64,000 nt of DNA from a virus. Below the pieces are notes generated by a model that saw only the letters and a list, made by a program, of their open reading frames with translations, ran no database searches and was not told the origin of the DNA. Every line of letters begins with the position of its first letter. Positions within the stretch are counted from its first letter, which is position 1. The translations under genes were made by a program, and so were the position numbers. This document shows, in pieces, positions 2,559 through 63,064 of the stretch. The DNA lies in the IMG/VR virus record IMGVR_UViG_3300033233_000004, positions 62,001-126,000 of that record, one strand, 5' to 3'.

Positions 2559-2687
2559 TTAAACGAGAAGAATGTTGTTACAAGAACATAAACATAGCCA
2601 TACAACAGTACCTCTTCTCCGACCAACATCTTTAAGCACCACAAGATTACCAAATTTATGTCCTGTTAAGTCTTTATACCTACCCAC
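2559..2687 (-). pseudogene. Remnant of zinc-module homing endonuclease (N-terminal part)
   Basis: In the gap between two glycosyltransferase genes one reading frame gives YKDLTGHKFGNLVVL, then GRRRG and WLCLCSCNN, before ending in TAA. This matches the N-terminal module of the intact endonucleases at 25763 and 41445 (LIGKTFNRLTVVEF, then WKCRCECGKE). The rest of that protein (SCGC box, catalytic part) is missing. It is a decayed insertion in a gene junction, and no function is expected. A GTG at 2687 could still start translation. Confidence 0.65.
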
Positions 2688-4623
2688 TAAACATCACCTC
2701 ACTTAACTGTTTTCCAACTGGAATAATATCATAATTCAATGCTTTTAGTCGTGCCTTCTCACCTTTAACTTTGACTTCTTCTGGATGTTCAAAAGCATGT
2801 CTCATCAAAACACGTAAGTGTTCAATATCAGGACAACTCCACTTCGCACCAATATAATTTCTAAAATACGGAAGCACTTGAAGTGGCATGTCTTCCAAGC
2901 GATAACTTAATGGATAACCCACCTCATCACTTATGAAATCCGTCATACCAGAATAATTCGTTGCAATTACTGGTATCCCACAAGCTCCCGCCTCAATTAA
3001 AAAATTACCAAACCCCTCTGCTCGTGAAGGAAAAATTCCACACTGGTGTGCCGTTATCATCTGAGGTACCATAGTCGGATGGAATGAGTTGGAAGTCAAA
3101 TAAATAGGAGCATGCGGCAACTCTCTACCACCAAGAACATTATTCCTCAACCACGTCTGAGCATCCAATCTTTGCTGTTGTAAAATATAGAACAAACTCA
3201 ACATATGAACAGAGAAAAATACGTCTTCATCAGGTTTAAATTCAGTAATAAATGCACGAAGAGCCAACTCCACACTCTTACGTTCTCCATAAGCACCCAT
3301 CATCAAGAATCCAAACTTACGACGCTTTTCAATAATCAATGGAATACGAGTTGGGTTGTAAATCTTGGTATCAATTGGATTTGGAATGATATCAATAGGA
3401 GTAGTAACACCACGCTCTATCAACAAATTCTGACAAAAAGTACTATTTGTTACCACATTGTCTACATGATTCAATTGGTCTACCCAACCATTGTGAGGTC
3501 GAGTGCCCTCAAACGTAGTATGCGCTATCCTTTTTAACCCCGGTGGCATTAAATATTGATGGTCTCCTTCTGAAGAACGCATAACGACTCTATTCCAATA
3601 ATCATTGGGTTTCTTAATCATTTCTTGTATTTCAAAATCATCCATATTCATCGGTTGATGATATTCTTCAGGAGCAATAGATACATCAACACCATTTCGT
3701 TTCAAACCCTTGGCAAGATTACGAAGAACTATGGAAAATGACCAATCACCATAGATTTTCCCTGTGATAAGAGCCTTCTTGTCACTGGTAGGCACATACT
3801 CTGACGCTGGACGATCATGCTTGAGATAGTACTTCTGCTGTTGAGCACGAGACAATTGACTTACCTTGTCTACACCACCAAAAACTTCATTGGAAGTCTT
3901 ATTTTCGTAATGAATTGTCTTAGCAGTAGGAATATAGAAAGTACGATAACCATATTTACGAGCAATAGTACAAAAATCTACTTCTTCAAAATAAGCAGGA
4001 TTGAACAACTCATCAAAACCCTGCATTACTTGTAAACATTCCTTAGTAATATAAAATAATGCGCCTGTAACATATTCCTGTTCTTCAGGATTGACTTCAA
4101 CAAAATCCTTATCCATAACGCCAGCTAATTTATGCTGCCCCCATCCATACACGTTGATAAAAGCTCCTCCATGTTGGATTCTTCCATCTGGAAAGAGTAA
4201 ACGCCCGCCAAGAATACCTATTTTATTAGCCCTATTCTTATCAGCAAAATTTACAAGTTCCTCAATACAATTGGAATACAACTCCATATCATTATTAGTA
4301 ACAAGAACGTCTGCATCAGGGTAATACTTTCTTACAATAGAAATACCATCATTACATCCACCAGCGTACCCACGATTCTCTTTGTTTAATACAAGACCTA
4401 ATGATATATTATGTGATATAATACTCATATATCCAGTATCATCTATAGCACACTTATCTCTCAAATATGTATCAGATATCCACTCTCGTGTTCCATCCGT
4501 AGAACCATTATCTACAATAACAACTGAGAAATCTTTGAAAGTTTGTCGTTCAAGACTTTTCAAAAAGAGTTTGGTGTAAAAGAGGTTGTTTATTACAGGC
4601 GTTACAACGATAACTTTAGGCAT
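2680..4623 (-). CDS. Two-domain glycosyltransferase (GT2 fused to GT4)
   Basis: A 647-residue fusion. Residues 1 to about 260 are a GT2 (GT-A) domain, with the strand KVIVVTPV, the VDNGSTDGT loop, and TNNDMEL as the DxD-like metal site. From about residue 280 a GT4 (GT-B) domain follows, with AEGFGNFLIEAG giving an EX7E pair near the end. Two active sites in one chain suggest that two sugars are added in sequence. GAGG lies 6 bases before the ATG. It sits between the intein-bearing glycosyltransferase and the single-domain one, in one transcription unit. Acceptor unknown. Confidence 0.88.
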   Translation of the reverse strand: MPKVIVVTPVINNLFYTKLFLKSLERQTFKDFSVVIVDNGSTDGTREWISDTYLRDKCAIDDTGYMSIISHNISLGLVLNKENRGYAGGCNDGISIVRKYYPDADVLVTNNDMELYSNCIEELVNFADKNRANKIGILGGRLLFPDGRIQHGGAFINVYGWGQHKLAGVMDKDFVEVNPEEQEYVTGALFYITKECLQVMQGFDELFNPAYFEEVDFCTIARKYGYRTFYIPTAKTIHYENKTSNEVFGGVDKVSQLSRAQQQKYYLKHDRPASEYVPTSDKKALITGKIYGDWSFSIVLRNLAKGLKRNGVDVSIAPEEYHQPMNMDDFEIQEMIKKPNDYWNRVVMRSSEGDHQYLMPPGLKRIAHTTFEGTRPHNGWVDQLNHVDNVVTNSTFCQNLLIERGVTTPIDIIPNPIDTKIYNPTRIPLIIEKRRKFGFLMMGAYGERKSVELALRAFITEFKPDEDVFFSVHMLSLFYILQQQRLDAQTWLRNNVLGGRELPHAPIYLTSNSFHPTMVPQMITAHQCGIFPSRAEGFGNFLIEAGACGIPVIATNYSGMTDFISDEVGYPLSYRLEDMPLQVLPYFRNYIGAKWSCPDIEHLRVLMRHAFEHPEEVKVKGEKARLKALNYDIIPVGKQLSEVMFSG

Positions 4624-4672: not shown

Positions 4673-7114
4673 TCAAACGACAATTCTCCCGACCTGCGCA
4701 ATGTTAGTATTAGTCACAGTAAGAATGTTCTGCATTGCTTCATTCAAAATAACCGAAGCTCGTTCCAACGACCAGTTCTGACGAATGTCTTTACCGAGGG
4801 CTTCTGCTCGTTGTTTGGCAATTTTGTAACCATCGTGACATCTCTTAAGACGATTCTTTGCCTTTTCAAAGTCAGGATATGCCCATGTTTGACCTTGACC
4901 AAGAAGTTCTGGCATCCACATCGCTGGTGGAACCTGTCCCATTTGAAACTCAACAATATTTACCAAATCCTTATTGATAAAATCCATATGTCCAGAATAA
5001 CCAGTAACAATAATTGGAAGATCACATGCAGCAGCTTCTGCCAAAGGACGACAATTATGAACAACATAATCCTCTGTGCAATAAGTCTCGTCCTCATCCA
5101 CAGATATATTGTATACAACCTCATCAGCAATCTTAGTCTGAATCTCTTTAATAGTAAACTCCGAATAATCAGATATCAATATACTATCCTTCCTAAAATT
5201 CATCGCCGCGTTGTAGTCCATGGGTACATCAACTCCATCAACAATATTTTTAACTTTATCCACATCTTCCCCATATATACACACACGATATCCAACATTA
5301 TCAGTTGAAAACCCTTGCTTTGATGTACGAGAATACATGTTACTTCTCACACCAAATGTCCTCAACAAAAGTCGAACGTGCTGCGCAAGTCCTTTTGAAA
5401 TTGACGAATATTCAAAAGACTTCTGATTAGTGCTAAAACCACCATCCCCCCTTAATAAGCCACACAGCAAACCAAGACGAAATTCCTTTGATCCGAATAA
5501 CAAGTCTGGATGAATATCCTTATTTTTAGCACCTGTACCAAACAACGATAACAAAAAATCGGCAAGCACTGGCGACGATACAAATACTTTATTTACAAAC
5601 TTATCAATAGGTTTATGAATAGATATAGATTCTGTATTAACTAAAAACTCGGATTTTAATATAAACAACACATCATCAACATACTTATCTTCATCTTGAG
5701 AAAACGTAAACCCTACAGTACCGCCATCTGTAGAGTGCCCTTCTGCAAGATAATAACCAAATAATCTACCGACGTTAGCATTCGTATTGACAAGATTTGA
5801 TATTACATTGTCCGAAGACGATTGAAAAATATTTTTTGATTTTGTCTCAAACATTTTACCTATCTTACCATTATCTACAAAGTAACAATTATGATTTGTA
5901 TTAACATAATTGGAAACCCTAAGTAAAATATTGTTAAACCCACGGGAATTAACCCAGAACTTAGGCATAAGTAATTTATCATCCTGTAATACATCTTTGG
6001 CTTCTTTCCATTGTATGGTAGAGTGGCGGTGAATCAATACTGGATGTTCAGGAGTAATCCACGATTCATTTGCTCTATTTGTAGAATTTGTAATAAATCT
6101 ATACATATTACCGTAATAGTGTCGAGTCATTAACTTCTTAACCATTCGTAACCGTCCATTACGAGTTACAACACTATCCATTTCTGTAATTGATTTTATA
6201 GGCTTCAAACCACTATCTGTTATTATATTAGTTTCACCATTAAAACAATACCCTTCTCCATGAGTCAATAATACAGAAGCCTTAATTTGAGGATGATGAT
6301 ACAATTCTGCCAACTCCTTCTCGGTTAAAGTACCATGGACAAAGTGTACTCGACCAGCAGCCTTTGTGCCCAAAACTTCACTCATTCTTTCAATAAGAGC
6401 ATATTTGTCAGGTGAAGAGTTATTATGAAGATAAGTTTTCACAACTATACCGACCTCTGGATTGTCGGGAAAAGCATCCAAAACGGCAAGAATAGTAAGA
6501 GGTATATTCTTACGGTCTTCGCCAACATTACCCGGAAGCCATTGTCCAACAGTCAAAAAATTGAATGTAGTTGGAAAAGAAAAGGTAGGTGTAGGTATAA
6601 CAACTTCCGTTTCAGGTTCTTCTGCCAATTTATTAATCTTGAAAGGATTAATATCATTGAATACCTTCGTATCAACACCCTCCGGCACTACATACACGGG
6701 AACAGTAACACCACAACCTATCAAACGGTCTTTAACAAAGGTCGATGGTACAATAATAGCATTCATTTGATTGCAATATGCAGCCCACTTCGCTGGATAC
6801 TGCTCAACTTCAAGACCGGCAGTAATTCCGATGTTGCAGGTGTTAGATGCTCTCTTAAACTCGTGTGGTACACCCATTTGTACCCATGCAAACTCAGAAC
6901 CATCTGAGATGCGATTATTGCACATGAATACCAATGCATCATCTACATCTTTGGCTGGCTGTATGGTACTCGACCCACCCCATCCGGTTGGAATAATTGA
7001 GATATTGAAGTTGCCACTATTAAAAAGTCCCATAACAATGTCACGAGCATGACATCCGTATCCACTAAGAGAAAACACAGGCATCTGGCATATCAAATTC
7101 TTTCTTTCCATCAT
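4673..7114 (-). CDS. Glycosyltransferase (GT4) interrupted by an intein
   Basis: An 813-residue precursor. Residues 1-289 and 688-813 form a 415-residue GT-B glycosyltransferase, and residues 290-687 are an in-frame intein. In the joined protein the sequence reads THGEGY-CRPLAEAAACD, restoring EX7E (Glu287 and Glu693 of the precursor, eight apart after splicing), so the enzyme should be inactive until splicing. AAAGGAG precedes the first of two ATG codons by 8 bases. It lies 14 bases after the upstream glycosyltransferase gene and belongs to the same operon. Confidence 0.88.
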   Translation of the reverse strand: MMERKNLICQMPVFSLSGYGCHARDIVMGLFNSGNFNISIIPTGWGGSSTIQPAKDVDDALVFMCNNRISDGSEFAWVQMGVPHEFKRASNTCNIGITAGLEVEQYPAKWAAYCNQMNAIIVPSTFVKDRLIGCGVTVPVYVVPEGVDTKVFNDINPFKINKLAEEPETEVVIPTPTFSFPTTFNFLTVGQWLPGNVGEDRKNIPLTILAVLDAFPDNPEVGIVVKTYLHNNSSPDKYALIERMSEVLGTKAAGRVHFVHGTLTEKELAELYHHPQIKASVLLTHGEGYCFNGETNIITDSGLKPIKSITEMDSVVTRNGRLRMVKKLMTRHYYGNMYRFITNSTNRANESWITPEHPVLIHRHSTIQWKEAKDVLQDDKLLMPKFWVNSRGFNNILLRVSNYVNTNHNCYFVDNGKIGKMFETKSKNIFQSSSDNVISNLVNTNANVGRLFGYYLAEGHSTDGGTVGFTFSQDEDKYVDDVLFILKSEFLVNTESISIHKPIDKFVNKVFVSSPVLADFLLSLFGTGAKNKDIHPDLLFGSKEFRLGLLCGLLRGDGGFSTNQKSFEYSSISKGLAQHVRLLLRTFGVRSNMYSRTSKQGFSTDNVGYRVCIYGEDVDKVKNIVDGVDVPMDYNAAMNFRKDSILISDYSEFTIKEIQTKIADEVVYNISVDEDETYCTEDYVVHNCRPLAEAAACDLPIIVTGYSGHMDFINKDLVNIVEFQMGQVPPAMWMPELLGQGQTWAYPDFEKAKNRLKRCHDGYKIAKQRAEALGKDIRQNWSLERASVILNEAMQNILTVTNTNIAQVGRIVV
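5054..6247 (-). mobile_element. Intein with LAGLIDADG homing endonuclease
   Basis: A 398-residue intein (residues 290-687 of the host protein). Block A begins with Cys (CFNGETNIITDSG), block B has WITPEHPVL with the conserved TxxH, block F reads VYNISVDEDETYC, and the last residues are VVHN followed by Cys as the +1 nucleophile. All splicing residues (Cys1, block-B His, penultimate His, terminal Asn, Cys+1) are present. The centre has two LAGLIDADG helices, LFGYYLAEGH (about 451-460) and LCGLLRGDGGF (about 550-560), each with its acidic residue, so the endonuclease could be active. It is inserted in the nucleotide-sugar binding motif, a strongly conserved site that favours homing between glycosyltransferase genes. 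Confidence 0.93.
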
Positions 7115-61333: not shown

Positions 61334-61335
61334 AG

Positions 61336-61421
61336 TACCCTCAGTAGGATTCGAACCTACACGCTACTATTACTTCGCACTGGCTTCTAAGGCCAGCATG
61401 TCTGCATTTCATCATGAGGGC
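61336..61421 (-). tRNA. tRNA-Leu(UAG)
   Basis: 86 bases, class II. Acceptor GCCCTCA pairs with TGAGGGT; anticodon stem CTGGC/GCCAG with loop CTTAGAA gives UAG; a long variable arm is present; the T arm is GTAGGTTCGAATCCTAC. No CCA is encoded. Its 3' end doubles as the ribosome-binding site of the lipoprotein gene. Confidence 0.92.
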
Positions 61422-61612
61422 AGTAATAAGTACTATGGTGACATTGCATTTGCAGCGAAGGACTTACTCTTAAAGTTACTGGCGGAAAAAGCACAAGAAG
61501 CAGGCGAAAGTATACCTTCTTGTGTAAGACCAGCAAGTAAACGAGCGGACAATGAACGAACTATACTTGAAGAGCTATCATTTGCTACGCCAGTACACAT
61601 TACAACTATTGT
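61422..61612 (-). other. 191-base gap between tRNA genes
   Basis: A gap with a 55-codon minus-strand frame (about 61433-61600, Ser- and Ala-rich, no ribosome-binding site) and a longer plus-strand frame. Neither shows a family or a start signal. I see no tRNA here. It may hold an RNA or only processing space. Confidence 0.3.
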
Positions 61613-61683
61613 CAAGGTGTTGGGAATCGAACCCAAATTATTCCAATTTCCGATACTGGTACCATACCATTAGGCGACACCCT
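61613..61683 (-). tRNA. tRNA-Pro(CGG), by anticodon
   Basis: 71 bases. Acceptor AGGGTGT pairs with ACACCTT; anticodon stem CCAGT/ATTGG with loop ATCGGAA gives CGG (Pro); T arm TTGGGTTCGATTCCCAA. The D loop (AATGGTATGG) is unlike many Pro tRNAs, so the identity should be read with care. No CCA encoded. Confidence 0.75.
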
Positions 61684-61691
61684 GAAATTTT

Positions 61692-61754
61692 TGAGGAGTC
61701 ACGGTCGCACACGCTTCGTGCATCCAAGTTAACCGTTTGTGAGTTGACTCCTCA
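61692..61754 (-). ncRNA. Structured RNA element of 63 bases
   Basis: TGAGGAGTCA and TGACTCCTCA form a 10-bp perfect stem. Inside, CGGTT pairs with GACCG and GCAC with GTGC around a 7-base loop. It lies between tRNA-Pro and the RNase H-like gene, just after the stop of the latter, with no U-run. It could be a small RNA, a processing signal or a terminator. Not a tRNA: no standard anticodon arm or T loop. Confidence 0.5.
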
Positions 61755-61756
61755 TT

Positions 61757-62251
61757 TTATAACTCTCTTCGTACTATTTTATCCGCCGCATAAGATGCAG
61801 CATATGCTTCTGGCTTAGGCGTACATGGAAAACCACAACCTCGAACCCATCCTATTGCCCAATCATACATTTCATTGCTTTTGAATTCTTTCTCTTTGTT
61901 GAAGTCTAAATGCATGTCATACTCCACAATATTTGGTAATTCAAATGTACCAGTATCTCTGAAATAAGTAGCCATCTCAATGATAATTTCAACTTCACGA
62001 CTCAATCGTTTGAAATCATCTCGATGATATTCTCTTGTCATAGTCCCAACAATGTGTGCACCTTTACCATAACGGTAAAGTACAATAGCGATACCAAATT
62101 CTGCCCATCCCGCATCTTTTGGAAGAGAATCACATCCTACCCAAAGAGAAAATGGTTCCTGTCGATACTCAGCAACATATGCTTTAATATATTGTGCCAA
62201 GTCAGTAATATGAACACGAGAGAGACCAGTTGTTCTAAACTTGAAATCCAT
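61757..62251 (-). CDS. RNase H-like protein (YkuK/DUF458 type)
   Basis: A 164-residue protein with an RNase H-like fold. FSLWVGCDSLPKDAGWAEFG has the first Asp, EIIIEMATYF the Glu, VEYDMHLDFNKEKE the next acidic residues and GWVRGCGF with KPEAYAASYAADK is the usual ending. The match with the DUF458 family is clear by pattern. Role unknown, likely nucleic-acid cutting. AAGGAAACC lies before the ATG. Confidence 0.78.
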   Translation of the reverse strand: MDFKFRTTGLSRVHITDLAQYIKAYVAEYRQEPFSLWVGCDSLPKDAGWAEFGIAIVLYRYGKGAHIVGTMTREYHRDDFKRLSREVEIIIEMATYFRDTGTFELPNIVEYDMHLDFNKEKEFKSNEMYDWAIGWVRGCGFPCTPKPEAYAASYAADKIVRREL

Positions 62252-62291
62252 GTCTATGGTTTCCTTTCTTTGTCAGCGTAACTTATTATTG

Positions 62292-62362
62292 CTGCCCCAC
62301 AGAGATTCGAACTCCGATAAACACCTTCAAAGGGTGCCGTCCTTCCGTTGAACGATGAGGCA
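62292..62362 (-). tRNA. tRNA-Gln(UUG)
   Basis: 71 bases. Acceptor TGCCTCA pairs with TGGGGCA; anticodon stem GCACC/GGTGT with loop CTTTGAA gives UUG; T arm CGGAGTTCGAATCTCTG. No CCA is encoded. Confidence 0.9.
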
Positions 62363-62368
62363 ATTATT

Positions 62369-62875
62369 TTACATAAAAATAAATGCTATAACGAATGACA
62401 CAATCAAACCAATTGCTGCTTGAATCAACAAGATTCTTCCAAAAATAGGTGTCACTCTTGTTATCTTTGGTGAAATCTTCTTAAATATGAAATTGTATGC
62501 CTGTAAAAATAATCCAACCAATGTCCACGATGCCCATACAACTTCGTTTCCCAATACTTCCAACATAAATGCAAATTTATGATTGTACCAATTGAATATG
62601 TAGCAGAACAGATAGTAAAGCAAATCTGCCAACCATACATCCCACATGAAAAGAAACAAAATTGCAGGAACCCAACTAAACTGCCACCAAAGTACTGTTG
62701 TAAGAAGTATCTGAAAAATGGTTTGATAGATTCGATATTCATTAACTTCCCATTTAAAAAATGTAACCATAATATTATTTCGCCCAAGTTTGTTATACCC
62801 TATATAATCAAATAAGGCAAACACAAACAATGCTGCAAAAGCTATTAACCATATAATAATCCATGAAAACATCAT
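62369..62875 (-). CDS. Multi-pass membrane protein
   Basis: About 168 residues from the ATG at 62875, with AAGG just upstream; a longer frame would run into tRNA-Lys. About five hydrophobic segments (WIIIWLIAFAALFVFALFDY at the start, WVPAILFLFMWDVWLADLLY, and ILLIQAAIGLIVSFVIAFIF at the end). No family recognised. It lies between two tRNAs. Confidence 0.65.
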   Translation of the reverse strand: MMFSWIIIWLIAFAALFVFALFDYIGYNKLGRNNIMVTFFKWEVNEYRIYQTIFQILLTTVLWWQFSWVPAILFLFMWDVWLADLLYYLFCYIFNWYNHKFAFMLEVLGNEVVWASWTLVGLFLQAYNFIFKKISPKITRVTPIFGRILLIQAAIGLIVSFVIAFIFM

Positions 62876-62892
62876 AGTACCTTCCTTTTTGG

Positions 62893-62965
62893 TGCATCCA
62901 GTAGGAGTCGAACCTACAACCTTTCGATTAAGAATCGAAAGCTCTACCAATTGAGCTATGGATAC
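62893..62965 (-). tRNA. tRNA-Lys(CUU)
   Basis: 73 bases, with CCA encoded after it (62890-62892). Acceptor GTATCCA pairs with TGGATGC; anticodon stem TTCGA/TCGAA with loop TTCTTAA gives CUU; D arm AGCTCAATTGGTAGAGC; T arm GTAGGTTCGACTCCTAC. The only tRNA here with its own CCA. Confidence 0.93.
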
Positions 62966-62992
62966 GTATTTTTAAATTCGAACTGTATTTTG

Positions 62993-63064
62993 TGCCGCCA
63001 CTCAGAATCGAACTGAGGCCTCGCTGCTTAAAAGGCAGGTGAGCTACCATTACCCCATGGGGGC
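62993..63064 (-). tRNA. tRNA-Lys(UUU)
   Basis: 72 bases. Acceptor GCCCCCA and TGGCGGC pair except for a C-C mismatch at position 4; anticodon stem CCTGC/GCAGC has a mismatch at its outer end; loop CTTTTAA gives UUU. T arm CTCAGTTCGATTCTGAG is perfect. The mismatches may mark early decay. No CCA encoded. Confidence 0.82.

What the first reader, a model, noticed from the sequence alone, without database searches (positions are those of the whole stretch)
5054..6247. Intein placed inside the EX7E catalytic motif of a glycosyltransferase
The intein (residues 290-687) has all splicing residues and two LAGLIDADG motifs. It lies between the two glutamates of the nucleotide-sugar site, so the enzyme is dead until splicing. 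The same phage has three further glycosyltransferases with this motif that are free of inteins, which could be future targets. I am not aware of a described intein at this position.
Basis: partly seen in the sequence, partly recalled or inferred. Interest (0 to 1): 0.8.

Follow-up and report, generated by a model that had tools for sequence, protein, structure and literature searches.

The report
Intein inside a phage glycosyltransferase active site
A phage sugar-transferring enzyme is interrupted, in the middle of its donor-binding motif, by a self-removing protein element that carries a DNA-cutting domain; the element is of an ordinary kind, but the site is apparently undescribed, and a second, unrelated viral enzyme carries such an element at exactly the same spot.

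Summary
Window 4673-7114 (-) encodes an 813-residue precursor. Residues 290-687 (window 5054-6247) are a class 1 intein: Cys1, block B TPEH, two LAGLIDADG motifs, C-terminal His-Asn, and Cys at +1. An AlphaFold model of the intein matches solved intein and homing-endonuclease structures (best Z about 21). The flanks form a GT4/GT-B glycosyltransferase (Z about 30, both flanks aligned). Joining the flanks restores the Pfam Glycos_transf_1 match, and three close relatives lack exactly this insert. The insert separates the two glutamates of the EX7E donor-site motif, as claimed. One claim fails: the three neighbouring glycosyltransferases are poor future targets (Gly at +1; only 18-21 of 40 bases match around the site). 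I found a second glycosyltransferase, in an unrelated viral contig (L145), with a different intein at the same position (EGF|C...HN|CLPLLE). Both intein alleles have Cys where all 91 readable intein-free viral relatives have Gly (88) or Phe (3). So this is a new member of a known kind at an apparently undescribed insertion site used at least twice. Splicing and homing are inferred from sequence and structure, not shown.

The parts
4673..7114 (-). precursor gene: GT4 glycosyltransferase interrupted by an intein, 813 aa
6248..7114 (-). N-extein, residues 1-289, ending ...THGEGY; holds Glu287, the first E of EX7E (6254-6256)
   Evidence: fold match spans both exteins
5054..6247 (-). intein, 398 aa, Cys1 to Asn398
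   Evidence: exact absence in relatives
6245..6247 (-). Cys1, N-terminal nucleophile (block A, CFNGETNI)
   Evidence: invariant and alignments
6044..6055 (-). block B TPEH (Thr65, His68)
5228..5791 (-). LAGLIDADG homing endonuclease domain (intein residues 153-340)
   Evidence: structure match to I-DmoI, Z about 17, rmsd 2.5-2.6 over about 165 residues; Pfam LAGLIDADG_3
5738..5764 (-). LAGLIDADG motif 1, LFGYYLAEG (Glu169)
5441..5470 (-). LAGLIDADG motif 2, LLCGLLRGDG (Asp268)
5054..5059 (-). C-terminal His397-Asn398 (block G)
5051..5053 (-). Cys+1, first C-extein residue; Gly in 88 and Phe in 3 of 91 readable intein-free loci
4673..5053 (-). C-extein, residues 688-813 plus stop; holds Glu693 (5036-5038), the second E of EX7E

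Best explanation
The insert is a full-length class 1 intein (Hint splicing domain with a nested LAGLIDADG homing endonuclease) in a phage GT4 glycosyltransferase. The whole gene is translated as one 813-residue precursor in which the donor-sugar site cannot form. The Hint domain then excises itself: Cys1 acyl shift, transfer to Cys+1, Asn398 cyclisation helped by His397, then S-to-N shift. This leaves a 415-residue enzyme with the motif EGYCRPLAE. Separately, the endonuclease domain is expected to cut intein-free alleles at the joined site so that repair copies the intein in. Insertion inside the donor motif means that any imprecise loss would destroy the enzyme, which favours persistence. Shown by computation: domain content, fold, exact boundaries, intein-free relatives, the +1 Cys association. 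Inferred: splicing, endonuclease activity, and inactivity of the precursor.
For: Pfam/NCBIfam intein and LAGLIDADG matches. All residues invariant among aligned inteins are present. The intein model (pLDDT 77) matches whole inteins: TliVMA Z 20.9, PI-PkoII Z 19.9; mini-intein Hint domains at about 1.7-2.1 A over 128-137 residues; I-DmoI Z about 17. The exteins, modelled in the precursor, fold as GT-B: 3oy2 Z 30.4, HepE with UDP-glucose Z 29.9, aligned range 4-5 to 797-799, so both flanks. The precursor has no Glycos_transf_1 match; the joined exteins pass its cut-off (27.1 against 26.4 bits) across the junction. Three close relatives (about 63-70% identity) lack exactly these 398 residues; L009 and L010 keep the neighbouring glycosyltransferases. 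The Microcystis and Flavobacterium phage homologues are also intein-free. A second glycosyltransferase carries an intein at the same site. Cys at +1 occurs in both intein alleles and in none of 91 readable intein-free loci.
Against: No experiment. Block F:4 is Asn, not the commonest Asp. Pfam Intein_splicing is 5 bits under its curated cut-off for the precursor. Endonuclease activity cannot be judged from two acidic residues alone. No near-identical intein-free allele was found, so recent homing is not shown.
Confidence: 0.92

Rival explanations
1. Intein that still splices but whose homing endonuclease is inactive or decaying; kept only because precise loss is rare. (A variant of the best explanation: it differs only in the homing step.)
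For: Intein-free relatives are only about 63-70% identical and 25-28 of 40 bases match at the site; no close copy of this intein was found elsewhere in IMG/VR, so there is no sign of current spread.
Against: Both LAGLIDADG motifs, their acidic residues (E169, D268) and the conserved Lys243 are intact; the I-DmoI-like fold is predicted complete.
Confidence: 0.35
2. The two EX7E inteins (window and L145) descend from one invasion of an ancestral glycosyltransferase rather than two separate invasions.
For: Same insertion point to the residue; the AU test does not reject them as sisters (p 0.104).
Against: They are 25% identical, no closer than to inteins in other genes; the window intein scores higher against KorB-type, Annamia plasmid and Enterococcus phage inteins (97-116, 103 and 95.5 bits) than against L145 (58.5 bits). 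About 90 intermediate homologues are intein-free, and only 22 of 40 site bases match.
Confidence: 0.2
3. The Hint domain cleaves without ligating (bacterial-intein-like behaviour), so the enzyme is made as two pieces.
For: Hint folds of BIL domains also align (2lwy Z 17.5).
Against: Cys+1 is present, insertion is in a conserved motif rather than a variable region, and a LAGLIDADG domain is present; all fit inteins, not BILs (BIL features from PMC5874633).
Confidence: 0.04
4. The 398 residues are a genuine domain of the glycosyltransferase.
For: Single ORF without stops.
Against: Absent in about 90 homologues; has its own Hint/LAGLIDADG fold.
Confidence: 0.01

Closest known systems
Class 1 LAGLIDADG-containing inteins (TliVMA 7qsu, PI-PkoII 2cw7, PI-SceI)
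   Same: Same order of blocks, same Hint plus two-motif LAGLIDADG endonuclease fold (Z about 18-21), same nucleophiles.
   Different: Host protein and site; about 17-22% identity in structural alignments; block F:4 Asn.
2-oxoacid:ferredoxin oxidoreductase beta (PorB/KorB-like) inteins of Bipolaricaulota and Aenigmatarchaeota (L116-L123)
   Same: Best-scoring sequence relatives found (up to 116 bits, 25-29% identity); all core motifs shared.
   Different: Sit in another enzyme (WCPG|C...HN|CGD), bacterial or archaeal genomes.
Intein in the glycosyltransferase of L145 (IMGVR_UViG_3300035198_000100)
   Same: Same site within EX7E (EGF|C...HN|CLPLLE), Cys1 and Cys+1, LAGLIDADG.
   Different: Intein 25% identical, 418 aa; the glycosyltransferase is a distant GT4 (22% identity over 259 residues).
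Active-site inteins of mycobacteriophages (TerL ATPase motifs, RecB-like PD-(D/E)XK, TOPRIM; PMC5050341)
   Same: Phage hosts; insertion next to invariant residues of catalytic or nucleotide-binding motifs.
   Different: Mostly DNA-metabolism proteins; glycosyltransferases do not appear in that paper (term count 0).

Membership tests
Class 1 intein | N-terminal Cys/Ser nucleophile | tested here: met
   Cys1, invariant in alignments
Class 1 intein | Block B TxxH | tested here: met
   T65-P-E-H68
Class 1 intein | C-terminal His-Asn followed by Cys/Ser/Thr | tested here: met
   H397-N398 | Cys+1
Class 1 intein | Block F:4 Asp (assisting position; not a required feature) | tested here: inconclusive
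   Asn380 here; also Asn in the six relatives. PMC4031507 lists F:4 as a less conserved position, most commonly Asp, so Asn does not exclude membership
Class 1 intein | Hint fold | tested here: met
   Model matches solved Hint domains at about 1.7-2.1 A over 128-137 residues, Z 17-18
Class 1 intein | In-frame insertion precisely absent from homologues | tested here: met
Class 1 intein | Autocatalytic splicing | not testable with these tools
   needs expression
LAGLIDADG homing endonuclease | Two motifs with acidic residues and the matching fold | tested here: met
LAGLIDADG homing endonuclease | Cleavage of the intein-free allele | not testable with these tools
   needs purified protein and target
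GT4 glycosyltransferase (host protein) | GT-B fold, Glycos_transf_1 domain, EX7E | tested here: met
   Z about 30 to 3oy2 and HepE; PF00534 restored on joining the exteins; E287-x7-E295
GT4 glycosyltransferase (host protein) | Glycosyl transfer activity, donor and acceptor | not testable with these tools
   not known

The most novel reading that the evidence does not exclude
The EX7E donor motif of phage GT4 enzymes is a recurrent intein site, invaded more than once, at which the conserved Gly (or Phe) is replaced by Cys; splicing there acts as a switch on when the phage's glycosylation enzyme becomes active.
Probability: 0.12. Interest if true: 0.65.

Novelty: new member of a known kind. Interest (0 to 1): 0.42.

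Why it matters
Most described inteins sit in DNA-metabolism proteins, often at nucleotide-binding sites. Here the same logic, a motif too conserved to lose, holds for a nucleotide-sugar site. Two divergent inteins at the identical residue, each with Cys replacing a nearly invariant Gly, make a simple test case of how a host motif is altered to suit an intein. The joined EGYC enzyme can be compared directly with the intein-free EGYF and EGYG enzymes.

Tried and rejected
Yersinia phage fHe-Yen9-02 first looked like an allelic glycosyltransferase intein (hit 278-384); translation shows a cytosine-type methyltransferase with an intein at SPPC. PHROG 36001 (residues 283-385) was not looked into further. 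The first junction pattern (GEG[FY]C + block A) gave 5 loci: four a protease-like protein without an intein, one a short frame. Wider junction patterns gave 22 loci; only L145 is a glycosyltransferase, and L147 is an intein-like insert in another protein. Intein alignments A3 and A6 were too divergent for a collection scan. The intein alone found no match in IMG/VR. The LR756511 hit (H64) is a ribonucleotide reductase intein. The full precursor model left the intein unresolved (pLDDT under 50), so it was predicted alone. A tree of 16 inteins is mostly unresolved. Surveys of whole genomes by phylum could not be run. Codon usage does not mark the intein as foreign (-1.436 against -1.477); its G+C is lower (0.34 against 0.41). 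No second intein or LAGLIDADG gene was found elsewhere in this virus record, but the PF14890 search also missed this intein, so it is weak evidence.

Full report
The window is 62001-126000 of a 171,836-base uncultured virus record, with tail sheath, baseplate and major head proteins, so a tailed phage with a contractile tail. The precursor ORF is window 4673-7114 on the minus strand, 813 aa.

Is it an intein? Profile searches find LAGLIDADG_3 (4e-12), Intein_splicing, Hint_2 and the NCBI intein N-terminal model in the insert; all but the first are under their curated cut-offs. Aligned with inteins of Enterococcus, Aeromonas, Mannheimia, Eggerthella and EBPR phages and an Annamia plasmid, it keeps every invariant residue: Cys1, T and H of block B, the Gly and Asp positions of the LAGLIDADG motifs, VYN of block F, HN and Cys+1. 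The same holds for a second set from bacteria, archaea and viral contigs. An AlphaFold model from 13 sequences (mean pLDDT 77) aligns over its whole length to TliVMA and PI-PkoII (Z 20.9 and 19.9). The overall rmsd there is large (about 16 A), presumably because the two domains are placed differently. Taken singly they fit well: Hint domains at about 1.7-2.1 A, and I-DmoI at about 2.6 A.

Is the host a glycosyltransferase, and is the insert foreign to it? The uncut precursor has no Glycos_transf_1 match; joining the flanks restores it above cut-off. In the precursor model the flanks form a confident GT-B fold, Z 30.4 to viral glycosyltransferase B736L (3oy2) and 29.9 to HepE with UDP-glucose, the alignment running from residue 4-5 to 797-799. 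Three viral contigs carry close relatives (70, 63-64 and 65% identity: L009, L010, L094) without the insert. In L009 and L010 the neighbouring glycosyltransferases are also conserved. Homologues in Flavobacterium phage immuto and Microcystis phage Mel-JY01 are likewise uninterrupted.

Where exactly is it? Motif after joining: E287-G-Y-C-R-P-L-A-E295. In PglH the first Glu contacts the N-acetyl group of the donor sugar and the second the ribose; either to Ala costs about 300-fold in turnover (PMC5792488). The splice junction falls after the third residue of the motif. The precursor is therefore very probably inactive (inference).

The +1 residue. Splicing by a class 1 intein needs Cys, Ser or Thr there (PMC4031507). 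Of 92 intein-free viral loci, 88 have Gly, three Phe (the three closest relatives), one was not parsed, none has Cys. The simplest reading is Phe to Cys (TTT/TTC to TGT) in the window's lineage, at or with the arrival of the intein.

A second case. A scan for EG[FY]C followed by an intein block A found L145 (IMGVR_UViG_3300035198_000100): a 799-residue ORF, open at the contig end, with a 418-residue intein at EGF|CLIPDT...IVHN|CLPLLEALA. Pfam gives Intein_splicing 4.5e-11 (over cut-off), LAGLIDADG_3, and Glycos_transf_1 in the C-extein. The two glycosyltransferases share 22% identity over 259 residues, the inteins 25%. The inteins are no closer to each other than to inteins in other genes, although a common origin is not rejected (AU p 0.104). 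The site DNA matches at 22 of 40 bases. Separate invasions are favoured, not proven. The scan needed a canonical block A and phenylalanine or tyrosine before the junction, so other cases may have been missed; and only the best 80 of 583 homologous loci could be inspected.

Literature. Inteins in catalytic or nucleotide-binding motifs are the rule, also in phages (PMC5050341; PMC7765530; PMC5874633). Searches for inteins in glycosyltransferases found none described, within an open-access library that lacks most subscription papers; InBase and the Novikova survey (PMC4760082) were not available. 'Apparently undescribed' is as far as this goes.

Verdict: real, correctly read in its essentials, ordinary in kind, at a site that appears undescribed and is used at least twice.

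Noticed in passing
L145:11329-13725 (+): Second GT4 glycosyltransferase with a 418-aa LAGLIDADG intein at the same EX7E position (EGF|C...HN|CLPLLE).
   Followed up: yes
L147:4536-6113 (+): Intein-like insert (EGYCFTPETRIL...FAVHN|T) in an unrelated protein of a viral contig.
   Followed up: no
L001:3749-5827 (+) (Yersinia phage fHe-Yen9-02); also many Erwinia phage hits: Intein at the SPPC motif of a cytosine-type DNA methyltransferase, annotated 'hypothetical protein'; weak similar hits in about 44 Erwinia phage records.
   Followed up: partly
L116-L123, about 3001-4130: Inteins in 2-oxoacid:ferredoxin oxidoreductase beta-like proteins of Bipolaricaulota and an Aenigmatarchaeote, at the conserved WCPG|C or WCAG|C motif.
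   Followed up: partly
L124:1108-4779 (+): SufB-like protein of a Thermoflexus MAG with two inteins.
   Followed up: no
L113:2446-6273 (+): Rad50/SMC-like ATPase of a viral contig with an intein inside its Walker A motif (GRGK|C...HN|STL).
   Followed up: no
L148 (LR756511.1, 595-kb phage): Ribonucleotide reductase with one clear intein and a second probable one further on; record is unannotated.
   Followed up: no
window 2680-4623 (-): Fusion of a GT2 and a GT4 glycosyltransferase in one protein, conserved in L009 and L010; the cluster of four glycosyltransferases suggests a phage-encoded glycan pathway.
   Followed up: partly
window 61335-63064 (-): Cluster of five tRNA genes (Leu, Pro, Gln, Lys, Lys).
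   Followed up: no
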